A DNA stretch of 64,000 bases from Strigops habroptila (lineage: Eukaryota > Chordata > Aves > Psittaciformes > Psittacidae), in assembly GCF_004027225.2 (NCBI RefSeq), contig NC_046358.1, forward strand, positions 3,376,720-3,440,719, read 5' to 3'. A program made the translations under genes and the position numbers. The notes beneath the pieces are model-generated. The model ran no database searches and was not told where the DNA came from. It saw nothing but the letters and a program-made list of their open reading frames with translations. The first letter of the stretch is position 1; each line of letters begins with the position of its first letter. Shown here piece after piece: positions 19,001-59,100 of this stretch.

Positions 19001-20474
19001 CCACTAGATAAAAGCAGACTCATCTGCTCTTTCTCCAGCCTGTCAGCCTCCCATCAGAGCTGGCCTTTTGGCAAGCTTCACGCCTGCTTAGTTTGTAATC
19101 TAAAATTTCCCTTAGGCAAGAGAGAGGTGCCAGTGACTTGATCACAACCACATCACCTCTGGGCATGCACAGGAACAAGAATTTTGTCTCCTTAAGTTTT
19201 GCAGTGGATCTGCCAAGGTACTGTTTCCGCGTAGAAGGAAACGGACACAGAAGTCCCTCTATGAACCTTGGAAGGATTGTTTCATTTGTAAAGCACAAAA
19301 AGGCCCCGTGAATAGAATAGGAAATAAGAGGAGCTTGTGGAACGCATTCTGTGAACAAATGAGAATACAAACATACCCTAAAATATAAACATATGATGAA
19401 ATTCACTGAGTAGATGCCCAGACATCCAAAATCCATTGCATCCTATACTACTATTACTAGCTGTGCTATCTAACAGTGTGTAAAACTGGCAGGTTAAAAC
19501 TGAACTTTAGGATCCTACCCCTCGGTACAAAGAAGAGAAGACCAACTCCTGATGGCACTTCTGGGGGAGCACAAAGTGCTCATGTGCTTATTCCACTTGG
19601 TGTTTCTCATTTAACCAGGAATTAATTTGGTGTAGCCTTAAAAAGGAACAATGTGCTCTGGAAGGTGTTTTCCTGAACTGCTCATAAGCAAAGGTTTTGT
19701 TCTTAACTATGGCTTACCATTGATGATTGTTTTATGGGAAAGATTTAATGATACCATCATAATACTTTTAACCTGATACTGCTCATTAAAAAATGGAAAT
19801 ATTGAAGCATTCCAAACCCGTGTTTACCACATGTTGATACGGACAAGCCTTCAGCTGGTGGCTGATGTATCTAACTCTCCATGTCTGTTTACCGTTTCAG
19901 GAGCACGGAAGTCATGAGTACTGTCTCAGGTACACGAAGTACAACAATCACTTTTACTGTCCGACCCGGAACCAGCCAGCCGATCACACTGCAGAGCAGG
20001 TCCCCAGACTATGACAGTAGGACCTCAGGAGCAAGGCATGCTCCAAGCCCTGTGGTTTCACCAACAGAGATCAATAAAGACATCATGCCTGCTCCTCTGA
20101 GTGCTTCTGCTTCAGCTTCATCTCCTTCTCCAACTCTGTCCGATGTATTTAGCCTACCCAGCCAGCCCCCTTCAGGGGACTTATTTGGCTTGACCACAGG
20201 GCGCAGCAGGTCTCCTTCTCCCTCAATATTACAACAGCCAATCTCAAATAAGCCTTTTACAACTAAGCCTGTCCACCTGTGGACTAAACCAGATGTGGCA
20301 GATTGGTTGGAAAGTCTAAACTTAGGTGAACATAAAGAAACATTTATGGACAATGAAATAGATGGCACTCATTTACCAAATCTACAAAAGGAAGATCTGA
20401 TAGACCTTGGAGTGACTAGAGTTGGGCACAGAATGAACATAGAAAGAGCTTTGAAACAGCTGCTGGACAGATAA
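3928..20474 (+). CDS. SHANK2: SHANK2, C-terminal coding part (join of four exons)
   Basis: SH3 and multiple ankyrin repeat domains protein 2 (ProSAP1, CortBP1), a master scaffold of the postsynaptic density of excitatory synapses that links receptor complexes to Homer, cortactin and actin. Join: 3928..4058, 5397..5508, 6602..9014, 19901..20474, all with GT-AG junctions in phase; about 1,075 residues, open at the 5' side. Visible parts, in order: the conserved [13 protein letters not shown] and [17 protein letters not shown] blocks; [15 protein letters not shown]; a conserved basic block ending in [18 protein letters not shown]; a Homer ligand PPLEF (8272-8286); the cortactin SH3 ligand KPPVPPKPK (8662-8688); a polyproline run ([10 protein letters not shown]); and a C-terminal SAM domain of 67 residues used for multimerisation. 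Ankyrin, SH3 and PDZ domains would lie upstream. Identification is by strong residue-level recognition of the family; SHANK1 and SHANK3 are less similar. Confidence 0.97.
4059..5396 (+). other. SHANK2: SHANK2 intron
   Basis: Donor gtgagt and acceptor ttttttgtag bracket 1.3 kb of AT-rich sequence. No exon, RNA gene or repeat recognised. Confidence 0.85.
5397..5508 (+). CDS. SHANK2: SHANK2 coding exon ([17 protein letters not shown] block)
   Basis: 112-base exon: acceptor ttgtag, donor gtaaaa. It encodes [19 protein letters not shown] followed by the conserved [14 protein letters not shown], and leaves a single G that joins GA of the next exon to make Gly. Mammalian SHANK2 can include a 7-residue insert (DSRIFLS) at exactly this junction; no matching 21-base microexon is visible in the following intron. 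Confidence 0.95.
5509..6601 (+). other. SHANK2: SHANK2 intron
   Basis: 1.1 kb, GT-AG, AT-rich. Searched by eye for the DSRIFLS microexon known from mammals without success. No repeats recognised. Confidence 0.85.
6602..9014 (+). CDS. SHANK2: SHANK2 large proline/serine-rich exon
   Basis: 2,413-base exon encoding about 804 residues, continuously open, beginning [20 protein letters not shown]. It is the long unstructured region of Shank2. Blocks of near identity to mammals (YRSL-type phosphosites such as [52 protein letters not shown]) alternate with variable linkers. Ligand motifs: Homer EVH1-binding PPLEF at 8272-8286; cortactin SH3-binding [12 protein letters not shown] at 8662-8697; [10 protein letters not shown] near 8764-8793. 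An acidic stretch ([15 protein letters not shown]) lies near 8008-8050. The donor is gtaaac after 9014; the reading frame would stop at 9016-9018 if unspliced, and splicing to 19901 restores the conserved continuation (AG|G = Arg). Confidence 0.97.
8272..8286 (+). other. SHANK2: Homer EVH1 ligand motif (PPLEF) in SHANK2
   Basis: Residues PPLEF in the context [13 protein letters not shown] fit the PPxxF consensus bound by the EVH1 domain of Homer proteins, a known Shank partner. Motif is visible directly; binding is established for the family. Confidence 0.85.
8662..8697 (+). other. SHANK2: Cortactin SH3 ligand motif in SHANK2
   Basis: [12 protein letters not shown] is the proline motif by which CortBP1/Shank2 binds the SH3 domain of cortactin (class II-like +PPxPxKPxW/M pattern). 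The partner gene CTTN is in the same window on the opposite strand, its SH3 exons at 36707-36843 and 37422-37493. Confidence 0.85.
9310..9326 (+). repeat. Poly-A tract
   Basis: Run of about 17 A in the SHANK2 intron; no attached retroposon body was recognised. Confidence 0.7.
10279..10317. repeat. (CA)n / (TA)n microsatellite
   Basis: Ten AC units followed directly by short AT repeats in the last SHANK2 intron; a compound simple repeat likely to be length-polymorphic. Confidence 0.9.
10740..10996 (+). mobile_element. CR1 LINE fragment, 3' end
   Basis: 5'-truncated copy of a chicken-repeat-1 type LINE. Contains the family landmarks: tttactgtgagggtggtgag, gcactggaacaggttgccca, ttcaaggccaggttggac, ttggaactagatgatctt and the terminal direct octamer (attctgtgattctatg). 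Located in the last SHANK2 intron in sense orientation. It is the longest CR1 piece in the window (about 260 bases). Confidence 0.93.
13430..13950. promoter_or_regulatory. Candidate intronic regulatory element
   Basis: This block differs from the AT-rich intron around it: more CpG, several homeodomain-like TAAT cores, an RFX/X-box-like sequence gtcgcttagcaac (13625-13637) and two direct copies of cggtgctataaat (13478-13490, 13495-13507). The texture resembles a conserved non-coding enhancer. No alignment could be run, so this is inference from composition and motifs. Confidence 0.3.
16536..16702 (+). mobile_element. CR1 LINE fragment, 3' end
   Basis: Truncated at gagaagctgtggctgcccca, then the usual CR1 tail (ttcaaggccaggttggacac, ggcttggagcaac, ctagtggaaggtgtccctgc, ttggaactggatgagctt) and degenerate terminal repeats (tctgtgactctatgattctc). 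About 165 bases, sense to SHANK2. Confidence 0.93.
19901..20474 (+). CDS. SHANK2: SHANK2 last coding exon with SAM domain
   Basis: Acceptor accgtttcag; the leading G completes the Arg codon from 9013-9014. The exon reads [20 protein letters not shown], then Ser/Pro-rich sequence with [18 protein letters not shown] and [19 protein letters not shown], then a SAM domain from [20 protein letters not shown] (start 20271) to ALKQLLDR, with stop TAA at 20472-20474. The SAM domain of Shank proteins forms Zn-stabilised helical sheets that build the postsynaptic scaffold. It is the most conserved stretch of the gene seen here. Confidence 0.98.
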
Positions 20475-35111: not shown

Positions 35112-38100
35112 CCATGCAAATGGTTCAAAAAGTTTATTGAATACTTAATTTACAAAAATCATATCCCTATGAGGTGTTCTAGGCAAAATTGGATAAAATA
35201 AACTGCATAGAAAACCCAACCCTAGTAATGCAAATACAACATGGAAATGAGACAGAAGGAGGAAAAGAAATATATCATGACACACATAGGACATTCATTG
35301 AGGATTGTCCCAACCATCCAAGAATTGGTTCAAACATGATGCCTTCTCCCAAGTTACATTTTACCATTTTATACGGGATTTCTATATTCCCTTGGTCCAA
35401 ATTTACAGTTTATAATAAATCTTTGCATTCTTTCTTAGTTACTGCACCAGTTCTGCCATTCCCATTTGGATCAGAAGGTGGAAAGAGACAGTACATACAC
35501 TGAACACGTGCGCTGTTAGATGCAACTTCCTATCTTTGGTAGGGACCCTAAATCTGCAGTGAAGTCGCTTTCTAGAAGGACAAGAATTTCAGGTTAAGTT
35601 TTGGCAAAGAACAGGTTTAATTGTTATTTAGTAGAACACTACTGGAAGTTTCTGTTGACCACAGGAAAAGTGTAATTGTCTCTTGTAAGGTTTAATTTAT
35701 ATGGGGTTTAAATCTAATTATTTGTATTAACATTCCTTGACTCAAATATGGTTGCATTAAATGTCATTACTGCACAGCCTGTAAGAGCAAAGGATGTACC
35801 GCACACAGCAATTCCATCCTGCCTTTTCCCCCTGTTTAAAGCAGCGAGGCTATTCCTGCAGGTGGTCACACAGATTTGGATGCCAGTTTCCCTTTGAACA
35901 AGGAGGAATCTCGCTGAGTGTCTCAACACTTGTATAATAACTTTTCTAAGTTTTCCTGGGAAAGAGGAGGGTGAAACCAAAACACAAAGTAAAGAAATTT
36001 GGGACAATCGGTGCTAGAGTGTTTGCAGCCCTCCTCTGGGATAACAGGAACAGGAGGAGCAGGAAAACAATAATAATAAAAATCAATGTAAAAGCCAAGG
36101 AACTTCACTTCAAAAGAGAAGGAAAAAGTAACCAGACTGTTTCCTTCCTAACAAACATTAATATTCCATAAATATTGGACAGTATTTGATTAACTGCCAT
36201 TAGCTGCAAATTTCAAGCATTCTCTTTGCTTTGTCAAGCACTATCTGGAAAAGAAAAGATTATGCACCCCCTCAGCCCTCCTCCCTCCTACTTTAGTGGA
36301 AATGCAAATAACCTGCATAGCCATGATTTCCTTAGCTGAAAACATTTAGTGGAAGACTAACTAGACTTACACACTAAGTAAATCTGCTCACTTATGAGTA
36401 AAACATGCAATATTACAACAGACAGCCAGTTGTCCTCCAAAAGGCTTTTTATGACAATTGCTAATTTGGCAGAGAGATGTTTCCAAATGCATGAAAATCA
36501 TTTTAAGAGCCTTAGTGAAGAACATGGTAGTTACAATATATTAGCGATTTCTGTGGCATAAACATTTTAAAAAGCATCAGCAAAGTATTAAATATAAAAG
36601 CAATATGTATATACCCCTCCATCCTCAGAAAAGCATCATGATTTGTAGTGTATTAAGTCAGATTTATTGACTGGGGAATTAAGGCATAACCAGTAGACAA
36701 GAGTCTTCATTGTCTCAGCTCCACATAGTTGGCAGGGAACAACCCGTAGCGGCCTTTGCAGACACCCCTCCACCAGCCATCATCGATCATTTCTATGTTG
36801 GTGATAATGTCATCTGGGTCAAAGGAGATCTCGTCGTCACCCGCTGCAGAGAGAGAGTTGAAGAGGCTCAGTATCCACACAGGGGCAGCTCAGCTACCAA
36901 CCCACCACTGCTAAACACATCACAGACACCCCTCACCTTGCCCTCTCCCATCAGGGCACCGGGCAATGGCAACCTGTAAAGACACTTCCTCATCCTCTGG
37001 CGTGATGGTTCTTACCTACTGCACTTTAAGTGCAACAATTCCTACTTAATGCACTGAGAACCACTTTACTGTCTTGATCTCTCCTCAGAAATAATCAGTC
37101 ACGATTTTCAACAGCTCTGTTTGCCCAGGGTTTAACAGAGTGTTAACAGTTGGTTAAAAGAGATTTTGAGAACTCCCACTCTTTCCAGAAACAGTGGCTA
37201 GTAGTTTTCAGAAGTATTTCAGTGCTATTGCTAAATCACTACATCTTCACAGTTTTATCTCATATATTACTACAAGAGACTACGAGATGGGGGTTGAAAC
37301 TAGATGATCTTAAAGTCCTTTCCAACCCTAACTATTCTATGAAAGCCAAAGGAAAAATCCAGACTTATCTGTGCAGAACAAAGTTTTCAAAGAGCAGGTT
37401 AAAACCAAGAGCTTTGCTTACCAGCTTGATAATCATAAAGGGCTATGGCTGTAATTCCAAGTTCATTTTCATATTCATCATAAGCATTTTCTTCTAGAGA
37501 GAGAGAGAGAGATGATAGGAGAAAAATCAAAAGCATGAAGCACACTAGCTATCACCTGGAGTTCCTTCCTGTGGTGCTCCTCCTTTAATTCCACTGCCAA
37601 CCCACATTGGGCAGGGAACAAACTATGCAGGTTTGACACGTGCTGATGTTCCTTCCGAAGTGGATTTTTTTCCCTACATCGCACAAAATTAAAGCCTGAA
37701 GGAAGTGTCCACAAGTAGGTATTTAATAGGGTATAAAATAGACATGATCAGCCTTTTAACACTTTTGTAAATGTGACAGAACAGCCACTGAGCTCAAGAT
37801 CACTGTGTAAGAGACTATTTAATACAAGTGAAGCATGCATACAGAGGGGAAGATATGGGCCTGTTTTTGTTTAAAAGTCCCAGCTTTTGCTACCACAGCA
37901 AGCAGGTTCATTCTTCACACCTCATTTAGTAGCCAGAAAAACAGGAATTCAAAAAACACTTTATCTTGCAGTTTCAATGAGTTTTGGACATCCTTACTCC
38001 ACTCCATTAAAGGCACACAGCACATCACATCCATTTCAGAGTCCAAGAATTGCTGGCACACTGTTGTGCTTGGCAGGCCAGCGCACATTTTATCTCTGTG

Positions 38101-41100
38101 CTTTCTTCACAAGCTGAGCTGCATTGCACAGGGGGGGAATGGTGACCATTTCTGAATTTCTTTTTGAACTGATACCCTAGAGAGCACCAGAATTACTGCA
38201 ACATCATCTCACAAGAGTTAGTTAAGTAATTCCAACCTTGCTCTAGCTGTACCTTCATTTCCTAATTAAAGTTTGCTGGTGGAAAATCTGAGAAGTCTCA
38301 TCAGATTGAGACTTTAGAAAACTAAGACAGTGTCCTATCAGCACAACGATTCATTAAGTCATTGCACAAGGAAGTAATCTTTATCTTAACAGGTTTAATA
38401 TCAGAAATAAACATTTTACCTGCTTGGTAATGGTCTCCCGCCCCTGCCACTTCATAGACAGTCTCTGGTTCATATTCTGCCTGTCGCTGACTCACAGCTT
38501 CTTGGTAGTCCGACTCTGCAGCTTTGTAGCTGGGCTCTGGCTCACATGCAGCTGAATATGTTGTGCTGTTGTAGGTAGACTCTGCTGCATAGGAAACTGC
38601 ATCCTGCAGAAATACAGGTGGGTTTGGCAGGGGGTTGTAAACAGGTTCCTACACTTAGGATCAAAAAGCAGGTACTGGAAGTGATTCTAACCAACCTCAT
38701 AGACTGGGCTTGAGGGTGCCTTCTGCTCAGCTGGCTGCGTGGCAGGCGATGGTGGTGGAGTTTGTTTTTTGGCTTTAGCTTGTTCCTAAATTGAAGAGAA
38801 AGAAAAATTTCAGTGCGGTTTAATCACTGATGTCGTGACTCTGAAGAAGAAACAACCCTCCAGTAAGAAAGAAAGACAGCCAGCATACGCGGCAATAAAC
38901 TGATGCAAGCAGGCAGCAAAGAGGACTGGACTGGCTGGATCATTAGATCTGCCTGAAGGTTTAGTGTTGCTGTACAGCAAAGCCTCAGAAATGCAGCAAA
39001 GTAGAAGAGAAAAAAGTGAAGTAACAAACCCTGTGCAGTATGTACACATGCATGTGCTTAAAAATGCTCTTAGGCAGGTTTCCATAGGAGCTGCAGGGTT
39101 TGTGTGTCCAATATATTCATTTTGTTCATTCTGCTGGGCCTCATGTCCTGTTTTAGCATAAGTTTAGAGAACATGAAGCCCACGTGTTCTAATTGTACAA
39201 GTGATCTATTATCTTTGATTAGAAATGATCCTGCAAGCTCTTGCAGATCTGCAAAACACCTGCCAAGGCAAAAGACTGAATAGCTCAGACAAAACTAAGT
39301 CCTAGATACTGACAGTGAGGGATTCAAACATTCAGAAGGGTTCTAAGCAGTAGAAATAAAACCAGTATTGCTCTTGCATTCTGTAACATGGATCCGAATC
39401 AAGTGTTCTGGCACTCCAGCAGTTCATGCTGTGCCATCCCACCTGCAAATCAAAGGGCAAGTCCACAATCATCACTCGAAAGCCATTCATTAGGAAGCCA
39501 GGATCCCATAGCACAAGAAGTGCAACATTGCTTGCACGAGTTGAGAGACTTCAAAAAGACAGCTATTTTCTTTTGCCTTTCTTGAGCATAGGCGATAAGA
39601 AAACTGTGGATCTAGGGCCTAAGTTTCTTCTTTATTGTAGAAAAAGAAGAGAAAATACATGTTATGAGAGACTGTGCACTCCAGTTGTGCACTCCATCAA
39701 GCTGTAACTCCCCAAAGGATTCTCAGGATAAATTGCAGTCCAGAGGTGAAGGGGTAGGACTCTGCTACAAAAAAATAATTCTTCCTTGCCTTTGTTTGGC
39801 ACAGCTCAGGAAAAATACATCTTAACAAAGAAAGCAAAGTGTGTCTTGAGAACAGAGCCAGCTTTGAAGACAATTCAAAGCCCAGTGCTGTCCCTTCTGG
39901 AAGCAGTCAGTCCTGATGCAAACAATCCTCCCCCCACTTTTAACTCCTGTGCTACAGGAACAAAAGCAGCAGCAAAGTGTTTCTTAGAAGTGGAATCTAA
40001 GTTTGGGGACAAATTAAGTAGCATCAATCCATTAACAATGTCAAACATGGCAACAGTTTGAGTAATTTGTGCTAGGAAATGGGTCTGTACAGTCCAGACT
40101 ACAGCTTAGGACAGGCACAGAGTAACTGCCATGAAACATTTAAACTGCATTGCCCCCCCTCAGGCTGGGTTTCTTCCTCACTGAAATGCTCCATGGGAAT
40201 CCTGCCTTGTTCCCTAAGGTAGCAGAGGCTGGCTAAATCATGAGGCACCTGTCAATTCAAACCAGCAGCTAAAGAGCTCCCTGAACACCATTTCACTGTG
40301 TGACATATGTGAAAAGCAAAAGAAAAAGGATCACCAGCAAACAGGGCTCTTGGAGGAACGCAGCCCATATGTACTTACCCGCTGTGGGAGTATGTATGCC
40401 CACGTGCTTTCTTGAAGTGAGAAAACTTTCTGTCTCTACAAGGAAGTTCACTTAAGTCAAAGTCCATCCCCACGCTTTACAGTAACTGTGGACAGTGTGG
40501 CTTGCATCCCTCCCTTTTTCCTGCTCAGCTTGTGAGCAGGGGCAGTGCAGCCAGTGCCATTATAGTTTCCCCTGAAACTCATTCTCCCTCCCTCAGTGCC
40601 TGCAGCATCACACAATTAACCATGGAGATGTTCAGGCTGGAAGAACATTAATCATCTGGTTATGGTGAAATTTAAATACCAGCTTTGGGGGAAATATCCA
40701 ATGTGTCCAGGCAACAGAGTCTTTGATGAAGCACAAGAAAAAAAATCAAGCATAATGGTGTGAATTTAACCCACACTTACAGCAAAAATAACAGTAAAGA
40801 AAGTAAGTCACTTCTGAGACAGAATTGGATGGGGGGGGAAGACATAACAGTTCAATGACTCATGAGAACCTGTGTTACTACATTTAAACCCTTCTGGAAA
40901 ACTGTTTCCTCAGCAGAAGGAAAGCTCAATGAAAAGCTGAAATGGGTAACAAAAGCCTAAATTCACCCAAAATGAACGGCAAGAGAGCTAATGGAGAAGC
41001 TGAACCTCTTCCTCCACTACAAACTCATGCAATGAAAGGGAATGCTAAGCAGAAAGCCTGGTTACTTTGGCAAGACACATATGAGCAGTCATCTTCTCAC

Positions 41101-44100: not shown

Positions 44101-47100
44101 AGGCTCTGGACAAACAGTGCTGCAGCAGCTTGCGTGAAAGGTCACACAGCTGCAGACAGAGGCCCTCAGGATTACTGATAAGGCACCTCAGGCATTGTGT
44201 AACAAAACAAATCAACAAGAGACAAAGGGTGAGCTACTATTAACACACGAGTCCTCCCACCTCAGCAGCAGAGTTTCACCAAATATACAAATCCTATAAA
44301 GCAGCTGAGATGTAGGTTCTGACTAAGCATTTCCTGCAATTATTTTGCTTCTGAATAACACAAAAATCACAAAGCTTTTAACCATGCCAATGCTGAACTA
44401 AGATTCTTAATTCCCAAATTAAGATTCAGTTAACACCTGGAAGGTTATTTCCCCTAATCTCATGGGCATGTGCTATACCAATGGATGATACCACCTCCAT
44501 CTTCCATAATACTGGTTCCAAAAAAACAGCATCACCAACTATCACCATGGTATTAAACTACTTGAACAAGCACTCATATAGGACCACATGTCTCTCCCCT
44601 TATGAGCTGCTCTGTGCCCAAGGGAATCTGGCATTTATTACCAAAAGGCACAGCAGAAAAAGGTCAGGCTGCAAATGCCTGTGGTCACGACGAGCTTACA
44701 TATTTTGGGATAGGCTTAATAACACATACACTATTAAGTGTCCCCCTATCACCCTATCTGATGCCTCATATACATATGGTGCATCTATCAGATGGCTGGA
44801 GTTGCAAACAGGTAAAGCACAGGTACAAACACAGGAAAACCAAAGAGCTTTATATCCTGGCTGGAAAAAGGAAATCTCTTCCTTAAAAAGGAAATCTTTT
44901 CCTTAAAAGATTCTTTTTTCTCCCAGCATTGCATTGAAACACACAAGACATGCTGCTCAAATGGGATTTGAATCCTACTGACCTCCAGTTTCCTTCGAGC
45001 CTCTTCCTGTTCTTGTTTTTCTCTGGCCATTCTTTGTGCTCTCTCAGCTTCTGCCTTCCTTCGGTCTTCCTGCTCTTTTTCCTTGGCTAAGTTTTCAAAG
45101 TTAGCTCGGATGCTGCTTGTTTTATTAGCAACTGTAACATTAAATTAAAGTCAAATGTTAAGGTTCTGAATAAAGGTAGCCTGGAATGAGTTTCTAGTAC
45201 AAATTTCTTCTAGGATTGAACATGTTTCTGCTTTTCTGCTCTCTGAGCTCGCAGCCCATTCAGGAAAGCCCTTTTATCCCTCTTCTATCCCAGTGATATC
45301 CTGGGCTTTGGAACATTATTACCTCCAAAGAAAGGATTTGGGGCCACTGCCTTACCAGCTTCTATTGGCTTGGTCTTCTGGTAAGTTGATGCTGGTTTCT
45401 CAATATCTTCAAAAGTTGCAGCATTCTATCAGCAAGGAGAAAAACAGTACATTAAAAAACAGCAATTCGTAAAGACATTCGGACAGCTTCAATCTGTGAC
45501 ATTTTATTGTGATATTGCCCCTGGTTTTCAGAACACCAAAACAAAATCAGGAAGAATCAAAACTTGACAAACGGAATAATCCTTTCTGTAAATCGAACTA
45601 CGTAAGAATTAATCTCCAGGGGCAGGTTTAAACATATTCAAATCCTATTAATTAGAAAACAAATGTAGCTTATGAACAGGTGACTCATCAAAACTAAAAA
45701 TGAGTCAATGTCCTAAACATTTATTGTGTAGCTGTTGCTGTTCTAACCTATATTGTGCAGGATTTTCATCAAGGTCAAAGCATTCAGTTCCCTTAAAGAA
45801 GCAGATATTGTTAAAACAATATTGTATTTGAGAACAATATCAAAACATGAGGGTTTTTTAAATGAATGGTCTTGAGTCCTGAAGGCACAAGTAAAAAGAT
45901 CCTACAGACTTTCAAACTTTGTTACTTTCTCACTTTTAAATGTCCTACATAAAGCTGAGAATAAATTTATTCAGTAGATAAATCTCAATGAGGACTTCTT
46001 TGTGTTCTGTTTTATTAAATTTAAAAATGGACAGGTAGAAGGGGTATCAGCTGCCCTTTCACTGTTACAGAATACTAAATCAAATTACCCTAAAGAGAAG
46101 GTTCCTGATAATCAAAGTGGGCAAAGTTGGTAGATATAAGACACCTATTTTAAGCAGGTCAGTAGGATATCCTCGAGATACAAGACACCAGCTAGTTGTT
46201 AGAAGACATGAATGAAATGAATAGGTTTTCTCATTCTTTTGTATAAATTTTGCTATTCTTCCATTTCCATGCTTCAGTTTTCCCTACTTAAATATATATA
46301 CTACACCTATGTACACAGAGACATGTGTGTATAAACTGGCATCAGTTCTGTGTGTAGAAACTGGCTTTTTAAAGATTTAGAAAAGCACAGAACTCTACTG
46401 TTAGACTGGAGAAGTATCCAGAAATAGGGAGCTGAACACTACAGGTCCAACCAGACTATTTTGTATCCCTACAGACTATTTGTCATGGCTCTCTTAAGCA
46501 ACTTACCTTATCCATCCGATCTTTCTGCACACCATACTTCCCACCAAATCCTTTCGCATAATCTAAAAGCAGGATAAAAAGGTTAGAGCAGGGACTTTGT
46601 TGCCCCTCCCATCTTTCTGCCAAATGCAAACAGCCATTTCAAATGCAAATAAATAGCCATTTCAGCTGCATGCAGAGGTACAGTGACAGCTGCCAAAGAA
46701 AATGCAACGTAGTTTTTGATGCAGAAAGGATATACAAGAGCCTTCAGGTACACCAGCAGATGACAGATTGTGGGCCGCATGCATTCTCTGAGTAAACATT
46801 AAGCTGAGGATTGATAAAGTATCAAGCAAGGAAAAAGGGATGAGCCCTTCTAATGCATCACTTCTGTAACACAGCCTTTCACAGCACCAATTCTTAGCCC
46901 TCTGCAATAATCGTATAACCTAAGCGATTTTGCATTGCTCAAAGGAGCGATATCGAGTCTTCGGTGACCACAGAGGTGGTGTTTTTTTCTCTTTAACTTG
47001 GTAAATTCTATGAATGGCAAGAAAATAGAACAAATTTCTCATTCTAGTGGAATTGTTTGTGATACTCAACTGATGAACATTAAAGTCATTGGTAACAACT

Positions 47101-50100
47101 CTTGTTCTACACATGGAAAGGGGCAATTCCACAAGACAGCGTGAGCCTGCAACAACTCACCAACACAGAAATGGGGTGGCCATGCTATTCCGTACCACCC
47201 TTAGGCTGCACACTCTTCTGCTCACCTGATGCTGACTCCAGCACTTGTTAAGACTCCAAAATCAGTTTTACTCACTAGTGGCATTAACAACAAAAACAAC
47301 AAATGCCCAAAAAGCAGCTTTCTGCTCTTTGTAGTGAGTTATCCCGAGAGAAAGGTCTGATGAGCATCAGAACCAGCACAACAGAAGCAGAAAGAGTGTG
47401 TGGCTTGAAAAACAGTTTTCTGTTGGCAGTGAGCTGTAAGAATGTGCCCTTAGACTCTGTAGATGGACAGGCTTTCCTATACATCCCTGAATACAATTAC
47501 TCCTTCTCCTCCTAGCCCCAAAACCACTTGGGTCCCCTAGCCAGCTATTTTAGTGTATGTACTTGGGCTCTGCTAAGGCACATCTGATGGTGTATTTGTG
47601 TCACCATAGCACTATCAGAATGAACAACCTCATTTTCTTCAGCTTGGTATGTATTTTCAGCCAGAATAAATGTACTAAACTTACATTTTCCTGATCCAGA
47701 CTTCTCACTTTAAGATAACGGAAAACCAGGAATTCATGGTTTGTACCCCAACTATTTCACAATGAATAAAGAGAGCATGAATAAAGAGTATTTGCTCACC
47801 CAAGAACCACAAACATTCCCTATTTCTTGTTTTAAAGACTACAATCATTTTTAAATGATCTTGCCATAACTCATTGCTTGTTACTGGTTACATGCATGGT
47901 CCTTAGCTGAATATTTTCCCCACCAATTTTTCCAAGCAAAACTTGACATTTACTCTAAAACTGGTCAGCATGATGCCATTAACATCATACTACTAATAAT
48001 GTTATTATCACACTGTATATATAACTATTAACTAAATGCATGTTACAGAGCTTTTAACTGAACATTGGCTATCTCTTTCCTGAAAACAGGCTTGCTTTAT
48101 GTAACATTGGAAGAGTGAAGTGGAAGAACATTGCTAGATCATGTAAGAATAGAAGCGCAAGAAAGTGGCTGCATATTACTAGCATCAATCTACTCAGAGA
48201 ACTATTTAAGACTGTGTAAGAAGTGGCTGCACTGTTAAGAGAGTAACAAGTGAAAACGGTGCCTTGTTGAGATTCATGCTTGGCTAGTTTCTCCTTGTAA
48301 TCAAACCCCAGAGCAGATGGGTCCTGCCTTTCTGTCTGTACACCAAATTTCCCTCCGAAGCCACTCTTATAGTCTGAAAAAGCCACATGACACTCAAATT
48401 TTTGCAGTATTTTCAATCACCAATAATTTTGGATAGTGAACAAATAATCTCAATATACTTTTGTAAGAGGAAATTCAGAGGAAGTTCCCAGTTGAGATTA
48501 GGAAGAGGTCGACATGATTTATCAGACTTAAGAACACCATTCTGAAGTCACAGAATAAAGCACTTCTTAACATTTTTCATAGATACTGCATAATGCACTT
48601 GTATTTGATCAACATTACAAACACAAATACACACATTGTATGTTCACCAGAACAAAATAACACACAAAAGGATACAAGAGACTAAAATGTGTGGTTATCA
48701 GTGTGGTTAATATTTGTACACTACAGATCTGACTTTTAAAGAGGTGTTAAGGTAGGGTAGAGAGACTATCCTCCAGATATTCCTACACAGCATTGTTTAA
48801 AGGAAGAAGGAATATTCCTGCTTCTGCACAGCTTGAGCTAAGAGCTATGATCCATTCCTACTGCTGCCTTAGAAGAGCCATTTTAATATACGGTATAAAA
48901 TGAAGGCACAAAAAGGGAGGGGGCCTTCAGGTAATCCTCCCAGAACAAATCTGAGGATCACTTTTCATTTATTTAATTAAAAAACAAAACAATTAATTTC
49001 ATTTCTTTAAGTTAAGGGTGGTGATAGGCAGAAGGCTGGGGAGCAATCGTCACTTTGCAACTTCTCCTCTGGGTACCTGTATTCCATAGGAATAGGCACC
49101 TCCACAGGTAATGAGAAAGGACAGCATTAGATATTAGATTTCCCCTGCACAAAAATAGGGGTACATATAACAAAAACTAGAAAAGGAAGATTATTTGTGG
49201 AAAATACAAAGAAACTGTTAATGTGTGGTTTGAACAACTCAAGTGAAAAAGGAAAAACCAATCCAGGCTACCTGCAAACTCATAAAGCTTCTCCAGTGAG
49301 AATTTATTACTGGAGCGATAAATCTGGAGAAGTCAGAGCTTCTGGGGACTCAGTATCAGATGTGTCAAACCTGCTTTGCAGACACCAGTACAACCAATAC
49401 ACAGCAACCATTCAAACACAGAAAAAGGAGACCCGGGTCAGCTACTGTAAGGCTGTGGCCAAAGATACCACAGGAGGAGGGTTCACACAGGGAAGAGAAA
49501 TGTCAAAATGAGCGAAGTCAGAAAGAAAGGCAAGGAATTGTGAACTGATATACCTATCTGGGATTCGTGCAGCTGCACTTTCTCCTGGTGATCCCAGCCA
49601 AGTGCACATTTGTCTTGTCTGTCTGTCTGCACACCAAACTTGCCTCCAAACCCCTTTACATAATCTGTATGCATGAAGTTTCAGAAAACATTATTGCAGT
49701 TTATGACTGTAGAGAGTATTTAATACAAAAAACACAGTAAAATGTTATGGGATAAGTTGCCCTCTCATTAATGACAGTATCTTTCCCTCTTTCCCCTCCC
49801 TGCTACACTGCCTCGGCAGAGGGGAAGGACACCCATTCAGTAACTCTGGGATCACGGAGCAAGGAAGCACCACAAATCCAGTGCAGGTTACAGCACACAG
49901 ACTCAATGATATTCAAAGATGTGAAGAGTCTGATGCACCTCCTCCCTCAAGCTATATGTAGAGCATAGATACAGAAATAATGAAGGACTTGATACCTCCT
50001 CTGAATACCACGGATCTGTGCAATTACACATTTATTTCAATAACATCCATACAGACACGAAGTCCTTCGGAAATGTGCTTGTGAAACACTCAGGGACAGA

Positions 50101-53100
50101 AAGGGCAAAAACACACATTTACCACAAAAAACCCCCCACCCTAACCAAAATACTTTTCCCCAGGTTTAAAAGGCTACTTGATTTGAAGTAGTAGTTTGAA
50201 ATAAAATGATAAACCACTTTCTGTGATTCATGTTCTATCTGTTTTGCCTTGACATTCAAAGCCAACAGCATTTTTGTCGACTTTGTCCTTGTCAACACCA
50301 TATTTATCACTAAAGCCCTTGGAATAATCTAGAGATAAGAGTGAAGAATTTTGTTTGTAAGTGTTCAATAACAAAGCATTACCTTGAAAAATTGTGATAA
50401 TCAGACCTGCTAACATTACATCAGGTATTAAATGAAGAACTGACATCCCCGGTTAATCTTGATTCCAGACATTTAAGTCATAAATACTTCAGAATTCTTT
50501 AACTCTTCAGGATGGAAAATGAAATAGCATCATGTGTAGTTCAACTGCTGGGCACTATCAGCAATTCTGCTACTTGATTCCTTGATAAAAGTCTTAAGAC
50601 ACTTAGAGCAAAGTGAACTTCAAAACCTGTGTCAGCAACAGCCTGGATGCTCTTAAACAAACACCCCATGGTACTCTCTGGCATTTCTAGAGTGTAAATT
50701 GAGTTTCTTTGAGAGAAACAGAAAACAGATGGCAAAAAAGTCACAATTTTTCAATGAAATGGTTGATTTTTGATCAGACCTGCCTGGAAACCTGACTAGC
50801 AACACAATAATAACAACTCTAAATCTGATAAATGCTTCCAAAGTAAGGGCAGTTGGCTCATCACTTAAAACCTGTGGTTTAGGTTTCTTTTTCAGAAGTC
50901 AAAGTTTTCAGCAAGCTCAATTTTATTCAGTGTTAACTTTCAGCACATTAGGAGTGCAACAGATGTAAAAAACTAGTATTTTACAACACTGCCTTATCAT
51001 GACTGCCTACTACCTCGGAGGATGAGCCCACTACCATATGTGCCTACTCGCCCTTCTGTGGCTCATGTTTCTCTGTTTTCAAACCCCACTGCACTCTTGT
51101 CCACTCTGTCAGCCTGTACTCTGTATTTTCCACCAAAACCACTTGAGCAGTCTGCATCGACAGTAAAAATAAAATTATGAAGCTTTTAATAGAAACATCT
51201 CAGCAGTTGAGGGGAATATCTACTCCTTATTTCCAACAGTGTGCAATACACTAAAAAACAACTCCAAGTCTTCCTAAAATGATCCTCACTTCTAAAAGTT
51301 ATAATTTTAGAAATGATCATTTCTAAAATGATCCTCACTTCCTTGATCCTCACTTCTAAAAGAAGACTCATGATGACAATCATGATGATGCTATTTCCTT
51401 GTCTTAAAACCTCACCGACTCATGAAACAGCTTTGAAATTCATTTTTTCATCTTGTTTTCCTCCCAACTCCCTCACATGTGATTCATTGAAAACATCACT
51501 AACAATTGCCTCACTAAACAAGGTCTTTTCCAAACAGTAAAAAAAGAGTAGAGATCTATTCTACTATTTATAAAATACATGTCTCTAGAGAGATGACCAC
51601 CTCACCACTTTACCTCTTTGGGAGGCATGCTTCTCAGTTTTGCCCTGATATTCAAATCCAACAGCTGACTGGAAGAGAAATGAAATTGCATGACAAAGAG
51701 TTAGATAGTAGTAGAAAAACTGCATGCACTTCAGTGGACACAGCACAGAAAGTTCCTGTGTCTTTCCATACTGCTCTGACCTTCTTGATCAGGAGCATAA
51801 ATACCTACTTAATTTTAGGCCATATTCAACTCATCTTAATTTCCCATTAGGGCCTTTTTCTATCTTGCTTTAAACAGTTATTTATCTCCATAAAAGTCAA
51901 GGTTATTTTACTGCTAAACTTCAAATACAGCTGGAAGAGCAGACCAGCATTTTAAAGTACTGGAATTTTTCAGTTGTACATATAAAATGAGAAAGCTAAC
52001 TACTGGTAGTAGCTGCAGTACGAGATGGAATTGCTTACCTGATCAACTCTGTCGGTTTGTACTCCAAACTTGCCACCAAACCCTTTCACCAAATCCACTT
52101 GGGAGCAATGCTTAGAAAGTTTGGCTTGATATTCGTGTCCAACAGCTGACTAAAAAACAAATGGAAAGCTCAGAAACAGCCAGCAGTTCTACACAGTTCT
52201 GCATGGAAGAGAAAACACTGCATCATGGAACCTGGGGATAAGCCTCATTACAAATACGCATCACTGCCAGTGTTCTTGTTGAAACTAACTTCCCTGGAAA
52301 TTGCTACTCACTTGAGAGGTCTTTGAGACCATCACCATGCTACCAATAGAGCCTAGGCAAGGAAGTGCCAAGAAACAGTCTGACAGCAGTGACTGTATTT
52401 CATGATGACTGTTTTAAATCCTGCATTTTTACTTTGAAAGCACAGGAATGATAAACAAGAAAGATACAGAGTCTTGATGGTGTTCATGCAGAATCTGAAT
52501 TAAGGATTAGTCCCAGATAGTAGATTGTGACCAAACACAACTAGAGCTAGGTTTGCCATTGACATTCTTTTAAGGACGGACCCTGATCTTCCACATAAAA
52601 TCAGGCATCTTTTCTCTATAGATTCTCCTCACTTGTAAAATGGCATCTCAACGTGAAGTGGTGCTTTCACGTTAAAGCAGAGCTCCCCGTGCCAAAGGCA
52701 TCCCAGCACCATAGCCTCCAATTCAAGCCTGTCCCTGGAACTCAGCTGAACACAGCAAGCTGAGACACAGTTACACCACACTGTGACTGGCTTCAGGTAA
52801 GACACAGGGATGTGTAATTACACACCTGCAAGTACATCCAGATAGCATTTGCTAGTGTTACTTTAATCTAGTGTAGGACACCCTTCTAGATCCTGGGATC
52901 GATGCTAGAGCCAAGCACCTTGAGGGGTGCATAACATAGCAAAAATGCTTTCTCTTGTCCAGTGCCAAAACTGAGCTCTGACCAGAGCAACTATGCCACT
53001 TCAACATTTGAGTCTCAAATGCATATGACTGAGAGGTTGCACCCTGTGACAATCACCTCTCATGACTCAACACCACCACCCATCCCTGCTATACGAGGCA

Positions 53101-56100
53101 GTTGGCATCTGCATCTGCAGCAGGGAGCCCTCCAAGCAGCTGCCCCAAGTTCTCACCTTTAAGGAAACTGTCTTCTACCAGCACCAGGCAGCTGGACCGA
53201 GGTGAATTCATTCGAGGACACAAGGGGTCTAGTGAATAACTTGGCTTTTACAGTATTTACAGGGAACATTCCCAGCACTCAGGAAAGCAAAACATTACCA
53301 CACATAATGGGTAAAGTAATTGCCAAGTAACAGAACAAGGATGTCAATAATAGGACACTACCTTAACTTACAAGCAATATAAAAGCTCCTTTCTTTTTCT
53401 GACTCACGAGTCATACTCTTGTTCATTTTGCAGGTGTTCTGTAGCAGAATAACTGTTAAATGTCACAGAAGAGGCTCCCACTTCCCTTTCTTCTTCCCAT
53501 TACATTTATGAAAGACATGAAGCTCTGAAAATGCTAGGGTTTATGTGACCTCTCTTTTGCTGTAACAATTGAAGTAGGTGAAGTTTAAGCATGTTGTTTT
53601 CTTTATGTGGTACCAGAACTTTCTGAATTTCACCAAACACCAAACATTACCACCAACCCCTTTTTAGAAAAGACTTGGAAAATTATTTTTCTTGGAAATC
53701 TGTATTTCAGAGTAATTTGCCTTCATAATTCCTCAGCACAACACCCTGCTACATTTTTAATCGGTTATGGAGGTCTGCCATATAAAATGAGGTAACTGTT
53801 CATTTTAAGTCAGCACCAAGGTTTTGCCCTAAATACAGCAAAAACCTGTACGACCACTATGCTGCAGTTACACTCACGGATTTAGGTGAGTCAAGCTTTA
53901 ACACCAGCACACCTACACAGAGGTATAGATACCTTTGAAGGAGAGATCTTAATGAGGAGGTTTTAGAATTACAGCTATTATTAAAAACCTAATTTATGAA
54001 CATCTCCTGCCACCAGTATCACTCAGGAGAGGGATAAAGTGCTGATGCCAGGAGCTACACAGGACTAATGACTGAATGTGCTCAGCACTTCTTTCCCAGA
54101 TTCAAAAGTTAGGCTAGCCTATTTCACTGAGCATTATACAGCAATTTACTCTGAAATATGAGAATCCAGCAAAAATTTAAAGCTGCCAAATTACTACAAA
54201 CCCAGAAAGTAAATAAAGTAAGAAAATCAAATCATTCTTGTTCAGGAAACAGTCTGGCTCTTACTTTAAGAGTACATGAAAGAAACTAGCCAGAAGTTGA
54301 TCTGCCTGTCTAACTATCACATGGCTAATAGAATTACCTTAAGAATTATAATTTCTTCTGTTAATAGAGTGTAACTTCAACTGCCATTAAGTCCTTATGT
54401 AAAACACGACCATCAGAATGAAGTACAATGATTTTTTTTAAAATACTTGGATTACTTGTCACTGTTGACAGTTTACCACTGTTTAAGAGAGCTGCCCACC
54501 CTTTTCTTCATTCTCTGGCACAGAATCGAAACAAAACTGGATTTATTCATGCATGAAGTACTTTGTTAATTTAAAAATATACATTTAGAAACTTGAATCT
54601 TGGCTCCAAGGGAATCCACTCAGGACATAAGCATGCAGACTTGCTCTGAAGACAGAGCAAGCATCAAACAAAAACGTGGGCCCCTTGCACATCCCAGAAC
54701 TTCTCATCATCCAGATATTCCTAATTTGCCACCTGAAATACTTGTTCCTGATGCTTTAAGTGCTTTAGTTCAGTTCTTTCGGTAAGAGCACCTTGATTTA
54801 TCTGGGGAACAGAACATGATGGCCTGACAGAATTGGGTAGTAGTGGTTACAAGTGTCCTTGATAGAGCACTGTAAGAATGCTGCTTCTGCCATCAAAGGG
54901 ACCCACCACTGTATATAGCTTATGCCATGACCTCAGCTCCTGCATCTCTGAAAATAGCAAAGTTGGAACAATTTTGCACCTTCACCAAGCTTAACTCACA
55001 TACATAGTTGTGCTGGCCACAGGCAAGTGAGGCAAGACTTACAATATCATCCCAGGGAAGCATTCATACTTACTTTATCCATGCGATCTTGTTCAACGCC
55101 AAATTTCCCTCCATAGCCATGGGAAGCTTTTGGTCCTGTTTCAAGCTCCTTCTCTTTGAGGTTCTGGTGTTCTTGGAATACATTCTCTCTCAGCTCATGA
55201 ATACTTTAAAGACAGATAATTAAGCAGCAAGTTTTACTAAGAAAGTTTCAGAAGATAACTTCAAAAAGATGCAAAGTAGAAAGATGATAAAAATATCATT
55301 TTAATTAAAGTTGGACAACTTGTATTTTTCAAACCCTTCCCGCTTTATCAGTGCACAAAACACTTCATGATATTCTGAGCAACAGAATTTATTCTTAGAA
55401 TCATAGAATAGCTTGGGCTGGAAAAGACCTTAAGATCATCTAGTTCCAACCTCCTGCCGTGGGCAGGGACACCTTCCACTAGACAAGGTCGCCTTTTTGG
55501 ACAGTTTTTCTACTGCAAAACATTGGGTTTAAGACTGAAGGGTATTTTGCTACTTGAACAACCAATTACTTAGAATTTCTATGTGCCTGAAACATGTTTT
55601 CTTCTAATATCCTAATTCAAGTTCTTTCCAACACTTATTATTTAGATGGCAACTTTTCAGAAGAGGGATCATGTCTTATCAGACAGTCCCTATGGTAACG
55701 GGACTCTGATTCTAACTGAGCGTTCTGGACACAGCTGTAATGTAAAAGAAGGATGGAAGGAGACATGTCCCGCCTCTTCCCCAAGTGTTCCCTTGCAATA
55801 TGCAGGAATTGAACTCACTGTAGCACAGGCTACATATGAGAAGAATAAGCCAAGGTGGTAAACTGCACCTTTAAACACTTCTCACCGGAGTTTAAAGCTT
55901 CCTCAGGTGGAATTCAGCCAGTAAGCATCCCCACTGCACTCCAAGTGAGGCAGATGACATTGATCCCTGAAGTAACCCACTTAGTTCAGTCTCTCTCCCT
56001 TTGCAGCACTGATGACATTTATTCTTAGCTTTCTACCACGAGGGTTGCTGCCCCAGAAATACACAAGCAAACCCAAAATGAACGTCACAATCACAGATTT

Positions 56101-59100
56101 CCTTAAACTGCTTTAAAGCTGAGTCTCAGACACTTCTCACAAGAAACACAAGACTCAGAAGATGGATCATTTCTGTCTCATATAGCCCTCCCTGACGCAC
56201 TCATTTGCTTTTCTGCCAGAGGGCTCAGTTTGTCACTCTGCCAAGAATTTTTATGAGTTTGGTAGCAGTTTTCTCAACAAAGCCTAAGAATTAAGGGACC
56301 AAATGTACCCTTAAAGTACCAAACTGGAGCTGCTCAGATCACCCAACAGAAACTTCTCTCCTGGCACTATTGGCTCCGGCCCTAAAACAGAATAAAGAAA
56401 CCTTCCGGACACAAAGAGGTGGGAAAAATAACATTTACAGTCACAAAGAAAGAGTTAAGAGTCCCTACACCATATTCCTGATCTTCATTTCAGATCTGAA
56501 GATACTGACACATTTGAAAGACCAGCAATTCTGGCAAATAATCTTCTACAGAGAGTCTTATTTAATTATGAAGATACAAGTAACTGAGAACATGAGTTGA
56601 TTAAAAGTCACCTGGGATTGTGACTATTAATAAATTTAAAAAGAGAGCTGCTTTACTTGATGTGCTCTTGATGGCCGGATCCTTTCACAGTTTTAGCCCC
56701 CCAGCGCTGTTCTTTCTCACTCACATCATTCTGCAAAAGACACACATAAAGAAGAGTTAAAACCCCAAAGACATCGCCAGTTATCTGCGCTTTAGAGTTC
56801 ACAGCAAAAGCCTTCAGCAGGGTAAGAGTAAGAAGAGCAGCTACTACCACCCTCACATCTCTTCTGCTGTGAGCCCTGTGCTTTGTCCCCTGCTGAAATG
56901 CACAGGGCAGACATTCAAGCCCCAAGAGGCTACAGCTTCTTGATGCAAACCTCTTCCGTACAGACTTCCCTGCAGTACCCAGCCAAGATAAGGTAGTTTT
57001 GTTAATCACCCACAGGCACAAAATGCTAATTCTTTGTCTTTAGGCATATGCTCCTATCAGTTTATTTTGCTGAGATATAGCCCCCACCCTGAAGAATTAC
57101 TCTTTAACACACCACGTTACGCACTTCTGAACGAATCAGTAACATTCAAAAGCCATACCACAAAATCAGGATCCGTCTCCCAGTCATCAGTTCCGTCAAC
57201 CTGGTTGATACAAACAGCGAGGCCTGCAGTAGCCTTCCACATCTGCAACACCAGCAGAAGCAGCACTGTCACGCTCCAGTCACATGTCAACCCCATTTAC
57301 ACTACGTATAAAGCTGATGCAGATGCAATCCCAAACTCCCAACGAAGGATGTTATTTAACCCCATAAACAGAAGCTACATTTGCAGTGAAAGTCAATTTG
57401 ACCATTGGCTCTCAAGCTGGCTTGAAAACCCCTTTTAGTTCTCCTACTGCAAAAAGCTTAGGAGCAATCACTGACATGATTTCAAAGAGAACAAGAAAGC
57501 CTTTCCTTGATCAAATTAACATCTATCTTCATTCACTGCATTGAAAGACTCCTCTTCAAACAGGTCTCCAAACCAACATCCATTTCCAAAGACTGCTGCT
57601 AATTCTAGGTCCTATGCATATATTTAAAGTGTAGGAATGAGGTTTTTTTCCCTCAACCATTAGCAATGATAAGTATGATATTATTCATTACCAGCATAGC
57701 CTACGTTATATTACATTATACCTACCCAACCTCATTGCATAATGAGTTTCAGCATTATGAAAGAAATCCAAAGAACTGTAAGAATTTGCATGCAACCTAG
57801 ACATTAGTCCACCTGCCTGGAACAACCAAGTTACTGTGTTTCTCAGATAATCCCTCGTGAAACACGTACACAAACTCAGTGTCTTCTCTGACTTCCAGGT
57901 GAAACAGAGGGTGAGTGCTGGAGTACTGACAGCAAGAGACAAAGTCATAAAAAGGCAAGAAATAACATCTAGAAACAATTCAACACTTTGTGCCAGGCTA
58001 ATTAATAACATTGGACATCTCACTTTCTGGAAACCTTATCCCCAGTGAAGTATCAAGTTGGACACTTTTAAAGAACACTTTTGTGACTAGTGAGCAGAAC
58101 AGCTGAGCTGCCAGGAGCTAGTGCTGTATTTTATATCCTTTATTCTAAGTAAACCAAAACAAATGAACTCTAAAAAGCTTTCTCTTCTCCCAGCTTTTCA
58201 GGTACATGAGTTAGAGGAAGGATTTCTTTTTTCTCATTTCTATTCCACTACAGTTCAGTTCTTTAACATACCATCATTCTGTCCACTTACCCTTCTCTAA
58301 TTAAGAAGAAATTATTATGGACTAGTTCATTCATAATATATGGATAATTCAGTAGGTAGAATGAAAATTCTCTTTTGGATGCATAGCTAACAATCCATAG
58401 GTAAAGTGCATAGAGAAAAAAAAAAAACAGCCTGGCAGAATGAGCCGATGAGCCACTTGTAAGGGGCATTCCAGAAATTTCAGGACTGGTAACAAGAACG
58501 AGAGCAACTGCTAGTCAAACACCAAGATAGCAAGTGAGAGAGTGGCCTGGAAGGAGGGTATAAGAGCAGAGCAGATGATATCCTGATAAAAGCTTTCCCC
58601 TTATGCTTCTTCGGGTTTCCCATCTCTGAATTCCTACAGAAATTAAAGAATTAGGCTTTGTTATATTACTTAATATTCTGAAAACTTGTGAGACTGCAAG
58701 TTTATAATACGAACCTTTAGAACACTGGCATTTTACCATTCTCCTTAGAATATCCTGTCTAAAGCCTTCTCATCATATCTCAGGCTCTCCTACCCTTTAG
58801 TTTGCCACATGGCCATCACTAAATCAAATCTCTCACAAAAGAAAGTGCTGGAAAGCAGAACCAAACCAGCTCAATAACGAAACTCAACGTGGGGTGCAAG
58901 TTCTAACTTTGTCACCAAACCTAAGAGGGATGGTTTGGATCCCTCCCCCTATGCTCCACCATGCTGCATGCTCTGCAATTCATACAGAAATGGAATTCAG
59001 GTGCCAAGAGCTGAAGTGCAGGTGTGCATGGTTACTCTGTATTTGGTGCAAAACACAACTTGGTTCATGCATTCACTCGATTCCTTTAGTTTGCTTTGCA

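What the first reader, a model, noticed from the sequence alone, without database searches (positions are those of the whole stretch)
49554..51668. Predicted natural 4.5-repeat cortactin lacking repeat 4
Cortactin is described with 6.5 repeats in chicken and human, and the fourth repeat is reported as needed for F-actin binding. Here exon 51614-51668 (phase 1) can splice directly to 49554-49664, keeping frame and giving a 477-residue protein. The Src tyrosine then falls at 346, 75 below human 421, exactly the 74 residues of the two repeats plus one N-terminal residue. A lineage-wide loss of the key actin repeat would be a natural test of what it does. In human, SV1 and SV2 lose repeats 6 or 5-6 only by splicing; this is a germline loss of 3 and 4.
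Basis: partly seen in the sequence, partly recalled or inferred. Interest (0 to 1): 0.88.

Follow-up and report, generated by a model that had tools for sequence, protein, structure and literature searches.

The report
Bird cortactin missing repeats 3 and 4
In this bird genome the cortactin gene still reads intact end to end, but the two exons for its third and fourth actin-binding repeats have decayed, so it should make a shorter cortactin with 4.5 instead of 6.5 repeats.

Summary
The window carries CTTN on the minus strand. Fourteen exons join into one open frame of 477 codons (ATG 57242, stop 36707), with the Src-site tyrosine at 346. Exon 8 (repeat 3) is a relic: 11-bp deletion, in-frame TGA, GC donor. 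Exon 9 (repeat 4) is a relic: 1-bp insertion, in-frame TGA, shifted weak donor. Including either would stop translation inside the relic; skipping both keeps frame. A Pfam HS1_rep scan of the 1.15-Gb assembly gave matches in this gene and one HCLS1 (HS1) gene only, so no second CTTN was seen.

Germline loss is well supported in this assembly. "Lineage-wide" is untested: no second bird is held. "Loss of the key actin repeat" is overstated: mammalian HS1 is reported to have lost exons 8 and 9 and still binds F-actin, more weakly; the cryo-EM model extends repeat 1's binding mode to all repeats. This looks like convergent shortening of CTTN. Likely result: a functional but shorter-reaching, weaker branch stabiliser. 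RNA evidence is missing.

The parts
57159..57242 (-). CTTN first coding exon (ATG; DDW Arp2/3-binding motif), exon 3 in human numbering
   Evidence: numbering
56657..56730 (-). CTTN exon 4
55074..55203 (-). CTTN exon 5 (N-terminal helix, first half of repeat 1)
52039..52149 (-). CTTN exon 6, 111 nt (second half of repeat 1, first half of repeat 2)
51614..51668 (-). CTTN exon 7, 55 nt (second half of repeat 2), donor GAG|GTAAAG, phase 1
51052..51151 (-). Relic of exon 8 (repeat 3): 11-bp deletion inferred from the repeat-3 peptide and neighbouring repeats, in-frame TGA at 51065-51063, only a GC donor (AGG|GCGAGT) at the expected end; 100 nt, not a frame-keeping length
50218..50328 (-). Relic of exon 9 (repeat 4): 1-bp insertion, in-frame TGA at 50230-50228, donor shifted by one base to weak AAA|GTGGTT; two glycines of the GFGGK motif changed
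49554..49664 (-). CTTN exon 10, 111 nt (repeat 5), joins exon 7 in frame
48263..48373 (-). CTTN exon 11, 111 nt (repeat 6), GC donor AAG|GCACCG
   Evidence: GC intron 11 of cortactin described in PMC554100
46507..46562 (-). CTTN exon 12 (half repeat)
45356..45425 (-). CTTN exon 13
44983..45131 (-). CTTN exon 14 (helical region)
38696..38785 (-). CTTN exon 15 (ends at PSSPVYE, Src-site tyrosine 346)
38420..38603 (-). CTTN exon 16 (proline/tyrosine-rich region)
37422..37493 (-). CTTN exon 17 (start of SH3)
36707..36843 (-). CTTN exon 18 coding part (SH3, stop)

Best explanation
This is the only cortactin gene found in this bird's assembly, functional but shortened in the germline. Exons 8 and 9 (repeats 3 and 4) were lost by small lesions and drift, and splicing joins exon 7 to exon 10. 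The product is a 477-residue cortactin with 4.5 actin-binding repeats and an intact Arp2/3-binding N-terminus, helix, Src-site region and SH3. It should still bind the activated Arp2/3 complex and run along the daughter filament, but for two repeats fewer: on the published structural model, to about the ninth daughter-filament actin instead of the thirteenth. I expect weaker F-actin binding and branch stabilisation, like HS1 or a short splice form. Shown: the intact frame, the two relics, and no HS1_rep match outside this gene and HCLS1. Inferred: the exon 7-10 junction in RNA, fixation in the species, and the effect on actin.
For: 14-exon frame of 477 codons with no stop. Pfam finds HS1_rep (5 stretches) and SH3. 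Full-length match to mouse cortactin in two stretches (8p94_I). Both relics carry frame lesions and in-frame TGAs. At 12 columns invariant across mouse repeats, the relics changed 5 of 23 cells (4 of 22 without the junction codon) and the intact bird repeats 0 of 54; Fisher p = 0.006 on the 4 of 22 count. HS1_rep matches in the genome: 16 of 23 candidates scored, of which 9 lie in this gene (2 are the relics) and 7 in one HCLS1 locus on C3. One place each for exon 10 and both relics. Precedent: mammalian HS1 is reported to have lost exons 8 and 9.
Against: No RNA or protein evidence. The first test made, a plain count of differences from mouse, does not separate relics from intact repeats: 10 of 67 against 13 of 167, p = 0.08; the invariant-column test came after it. 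Both relics keep acceptors that look normal; exon 8 keeps a GC donor in fair context, exon 9 a weak GT donor, and stronger GT sites lie downstream of each (4.1 bits at 51014; 6.2 and 6.1 bits at 50123 and 50140). Some inclusion, which would truncate the protein, is therefore possible. One assembly; reads could not be checked.
Confidence: 0.82

Rival explanations
1. The relics are still spliced into part of the transcripts and act as poison exons: inclusion brings a stop inside the relic, about 30 residues past repeat 2, and lowers cortactin by nonsense-mediated decay, as a regulatory switch or as noise.
For: Both acceptors look normal; exon 9 can still use AAA|GTGGTT and stay 111 nt long with an in-frame TGA; exon 8 has a GC donor AGG|GCGAGT that scores above the GC donor of exon 11 on the same recalled matrix; stronger GT sites lie downstream.
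Against: The donors at the expected ends score low (2.8 and 3.3 bits; the 12 GT donors of the gene score 4.5 to 12.5). Repeat-invariant residues have changed, so nothing suggests the peptide is kept. No conservation test across birds was possible.
Confidence: 0.13
2. Assembly or sequencing errors create the frame breaks, and the real gene has 6.5 repeats.
For: Two lesions in exon 9 are single-base indels, the usual long-read error; read data are not held.
Against: Exon 8 has an 11-bp deletion, and both relics carry changes at repeat-invariant positions. The other 1434 coding bases show no frame break. The assembly is chromosome-scale: 89 contigs for 1.149 Gb.
Confidence: 0.04
3. The whole gene is dying, and exons 8 and 9 are merely the first visible breaks.
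For: Two of sixteen coding exons are broken.
Against: The rest is open, with 13 plausible junctions and an SH3 end identical to the recalled human sequence over the last 46 residues. Three indels all falling in 211 relic bases out of 1645 by chance has a probability of about 0.002.
Confidence: 0.02

Closest known systems
HS1 (HCLS1) of mammals, 3.5 repeats
   Same: Reported to have lost the same two exons, 8 and 9 (repeats 3 and 4), and still to bind F-actin and activate Arp2/3 at lower efficiency (PMC554100).
   Different: This gene is CTTN by exon order, SH3, Src-site context and mouse match; it keeps repeat 6, which PMC554100 describes as gained by cortactin.
Cortactin splice variants SV1 and SV2
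   Same: Frame-neutral removal of 111-nt repeat exons, giving cortactin with fewer repeats and altered F-actin binding (PMC554100).
   Different: SV1 and SV2 drop repeat 6, or 5 and 6, by splicing from an intact gene; here repeats 3 and 4 are lost in the DNA.
Insect cortactin, 4 or 4.5 repeats; sponge and sea squirt, 5 or 5.5 repeats
   Same: Natural cortactins with fewer than 6.5 repeats (PMC554100; the paper gives both figures).
   Different: Different exon layout or an ancestral state; here a secondary loss from a 6.5-repeat layout with the relics still visible.

Membership tests
Cortactin (CTTN) | N-terminal acidic region with DDW Arp2/3 motif | tested here: met
   [10 protein letters not shown] in the first coding exon, aligned to mouse cortactin
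Cortactin (CTTN) | 37-residue HS1_rep repeats | tested here: met
   PF02218, 297.6 bits, 5 stretches
Cortactin (CTTN) | 6.5 repeats, as described for human cortactin | tested here: not met
   4 full repeats plus a half; exons 8 and 9 are relics. Shorter members are accepted in insects, so this marks a variant, not exclusion
Cortactin (CTTN) | C-terminal SH3 | tested here: met
   PF00018 and PF14604 above cut-off
Cortactin (CTTN) | Src-site tyrosine in a PSSPVYED context | tested here: met
   Y346; that this context is the Src site is recalled
Cortactin (CTTN) | GC donor after the repeat-6 exon (intron 11) | tested here: met
   AAG|GCACCG after 48263; GC/AG intron 11 described in PMC554100, with frog an exception
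Cortactin (CTTN) | Binds F-actin | not testable with these tools
   Needs a co-sedimentation assay
HS1 (HCLS1) | Second, more divergent vertebrate paralogue | tested here: not met
   A separate, more divergent HS1_rep gene exists on C3:116783-123464; the window gene matches cortactin over full length
HS1 (HCLS1) | Lacks repeat-3 and repeat-4 exons (mammals) | tested here: met
   Same two exons lost here, but as relics in CTTN: convergence, not membership

The most novel reading that the evidence does not exclude
A whole bird clade carries a germline-shortened cortactin. It lost exactly the two exons that mammalian HS1 is reported to have lost, while the bird's own HS1 keeps a repeat that scores closest to repeat 4, though only just ahead of repeat 3. 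The two paralogues would thus have traded which one carries that repeat, in a natural rewiring of branch-stabilising strength and of the PIP2 site reported in cortactin repeat 4. Odds were lowered from 0.35 to 0.3 on re-check, because the same scoring also misplaces HS1's second repeat.
Probability: 0.3. Interest if true: 0.62.

Novelty: new variant of a known kind. Interest (0 to 1): 0.5.

Why it matters
Repeat 4 is often cited as required for F-actin binding, yet mammalian HS1 is reported to do without it, and newer structural work models the repeats as equivalent spans. A vertebrate cortactin that naturally lacks repeats 3 and 4 but keeps everything else is a clean native comparison with chicken cortactin for whether repeat identity or repeat number sets actin-branch stability. 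It would also show the same exon pair lost independently in two paralogues.

Tried and rejected
Second CTTN or retrocopy: the HS1_rep family scan of the assembly gave matches in CTTN and HCLS1 only; DNA searches with exon 10 and both relics found one place each. A full-protein genome search did not complete, so this rests on the repeat family and on exon DNA; the tool scores only the best candidates and calls counts of repeats lower bounds.

Exon 11 GC donor as a further break: considered, then dropped, because a GC/AG intron 11 is the described cortactin state. Its context is still weak here, so skipping of repeat 6 may be common.

Which bird: the best single-chain alpha-globin match in the PDB was 2zfb at 276.1 bits, next 3mjp at 271.5; six two-copy chains rank above by summing copies. 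2zfb is a parakeet haemoglobin by recall; the tool shows no organism. Beta-globin did not support this: 2zfb_B ranks eighth of 12. CTTN and alpha-globin lie on one 86-Mb contig, which by recall of chicken chromosomes suggests fusions as in parrots or falcons. I recalled the kakapo assembly as about this size; others (listings; passages of PMC8081667) did not confirm it. Order left open.

Age: about 16 to 31 Myr for seven amino-acid changes, with recalled bird mutation rates. Very rough: of the 10 differences, three were dropped (I11V, taken as ancestral from recalled chicken sequence; D24E, conservative; D37G, at the exon junction).

In print: the listings of searches showed no report of a bird cortactin lacking repeats 3 and 4. 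They cover open-licence PubMed Central only, and I opened few of the papers listed. No Rfam family in the window. [quoted passage not shown]

Full report
What is there. The minus strand of the window carries cortactin, CTTN. A translated search with human cortactin (typed from recall) finds its coding exons in order from 57242 to 36707. Joining 14 exons gives 1434 nt, 477 residues and a stop, with no internal stop. Twelve of 13 introns are GT/AG; the one after exon 11 is GC/AG, which is the state described for cortactin intron 11, frog excepted (PMC554100, section read). Pfam finds HS1_rep in five stretches and an SH3. Mouse cortactin in the PDB (8p94_I) matches over full length, in two overlapping stretches that together step across the missing repeats.

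The two lost exons. The stretch 51151-51052 is the relic of exon 8 (repeat 3): it reads [25 protein letters not shown] and then breaks at a deletion of 11 bases, meeting TGA at 51065. Its end has only a GC donor. The stretch 50328-50218 is the relic of exon 9 (repeat 4): it reads [31 protein letters not shown] and breaks at a one-base insertion, meeting TGA at 50230; its donor has moved one base to AAA|GTGGTT. The 111-nt length of exon 9 is kept by the donor shift, so the stop is what disables it. Stronger GT sites downstream of each relic (4.1 bits at 51014; 6.2 and 6.1 at 50123 and 50140) would lengthen the exons but not remove the stops. The size of the indels is inferred from the mouse peptide and from the neighbouring and HS1 repeat exons; no bird DNA with intact exons was available.

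Decay or noise. Counting all positions against mouse, relics and intact repeats do not differ clearly: 10 of 67 against 13 of 167, p = 0.08. At 12 columns invariant among the mouse repeats they do: the relics changed in 5 of 23 cells (4 of 22 without the exon-junction codon) and the intact bird repeats in 0 of 54 (Fisher p = 0.006 on 4 of 22, made after the first test). The relics thus look young and moderately decayed; a crude figure is 16 to 31 Myr with recalled rates.

No spare copy seen. The genome is 1,148,577,936 bases in 89 contigs. The HS1_rep family gave 16 matches from 23 candidates, in two genes: nine in this gene, two of them the relics, and seven on C3:116783-123464. The full-protein search did not complete. 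The second gene is taken as HCLS1 from its exon layout and divergence and from PMC554100. By exon layout it has repeats 1 and 2, two further repeats and the half repeat: 4.5, as reported for chicken HS1. Scored against mouse repeats, the third repeat is closest to repeat 4 (153, repeat 3 at 149), the fourth to repeat 5 (152, next 125). The same scoring puts HS1's second repeat nearest repeat 3 (150) before repeat 4 (148) and repeat 2 (144), against its exon position, so the repeat-4 assignment is weak.

How it likely works. In Liu 2024 (PMC11102864, passages read), repeat 1 is seen spanning from the first to the third daughter-filament actin, and the model extends this to all repeats, so that 6.5 reach the thirteenth subunit, half a helical turn. 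Four and a half would reach about the ninth (my inference). The N-terminal Arp3-binding region is intact, so branch binding should persist with weaker filament hold. van Rossum 2005 (abstract, the first two of six text parts, sections 8 and 9 and passages seen) reports that mammalian HS1 lost exons 8 and 9, still binds F-actin and activates Arp2/3 less efficiently, and concludes that the number of repeats counts. The review PMC5675706 (passages) states that repeat 4 is required and that repeats 3 and 5 support it. The two views conflict, and this gene bears on the conflict.

Limits. No RNA, no second bird, no reads. The bird's order is open: alpha-globin leans to a parakeet entry by 4.6 bits, beta-globin does not. 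Lineage-wide loss is therefore only a hypothesis.

Verdict. The loss is real in this assembly and has a good precedent in HS1. It is a new variant of a known protein, not a new kind of system.

Noticed in passing
L019:4697-6816 and L020:521-2465 (G000:C3:116696-123464): The HCLS1 (HS1) gene of this genome has 4.5 repeats by exon layout; its third repeat scores closest to cortactin repeat 4 (just ahead of repeat 3), its fourth to repeat 5, and its exon 7 ends at a GC donor (AAAG|GCAAGT).
   Followed up: partly
48263-48373: The GC donor of CTTN exon 11 has a very weak context (AAG|GCACCG, -2.5 bits on a recalled matrix). If repeat 6 is skipped as in SV1, this bird would make a 3.5-repeat cortactin, the size of mammalian HS1.
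   Followed up: partly
6628-9018 and 19881-20474: Plus-strand open frames that look like SHANK2 (long proline-rich exon containing [12 protein letters not shown], and a SAM-like end); labels by recall, no family scan made. PMC554100 names SHANK-2 as a cortactin SH3 partner, and the gene would lie tail to tail with CTTN.
   Followed up: no
G000:C4:3376720-3440719 and C4:75283543-75284223: CTTN and the alpha-globin genes lie on the same 86-Mb contig; chicken CTTN is on chromosome 5 and alpha-globin, by recall, on 14, which suggests a chromosome fusion.
   Followed up: no
51271-51356: Three near copies (100, 95 and 73%) of a 22-nt sequence in the intron between exon 7 and the exon 8 relic.
   Followed up: no
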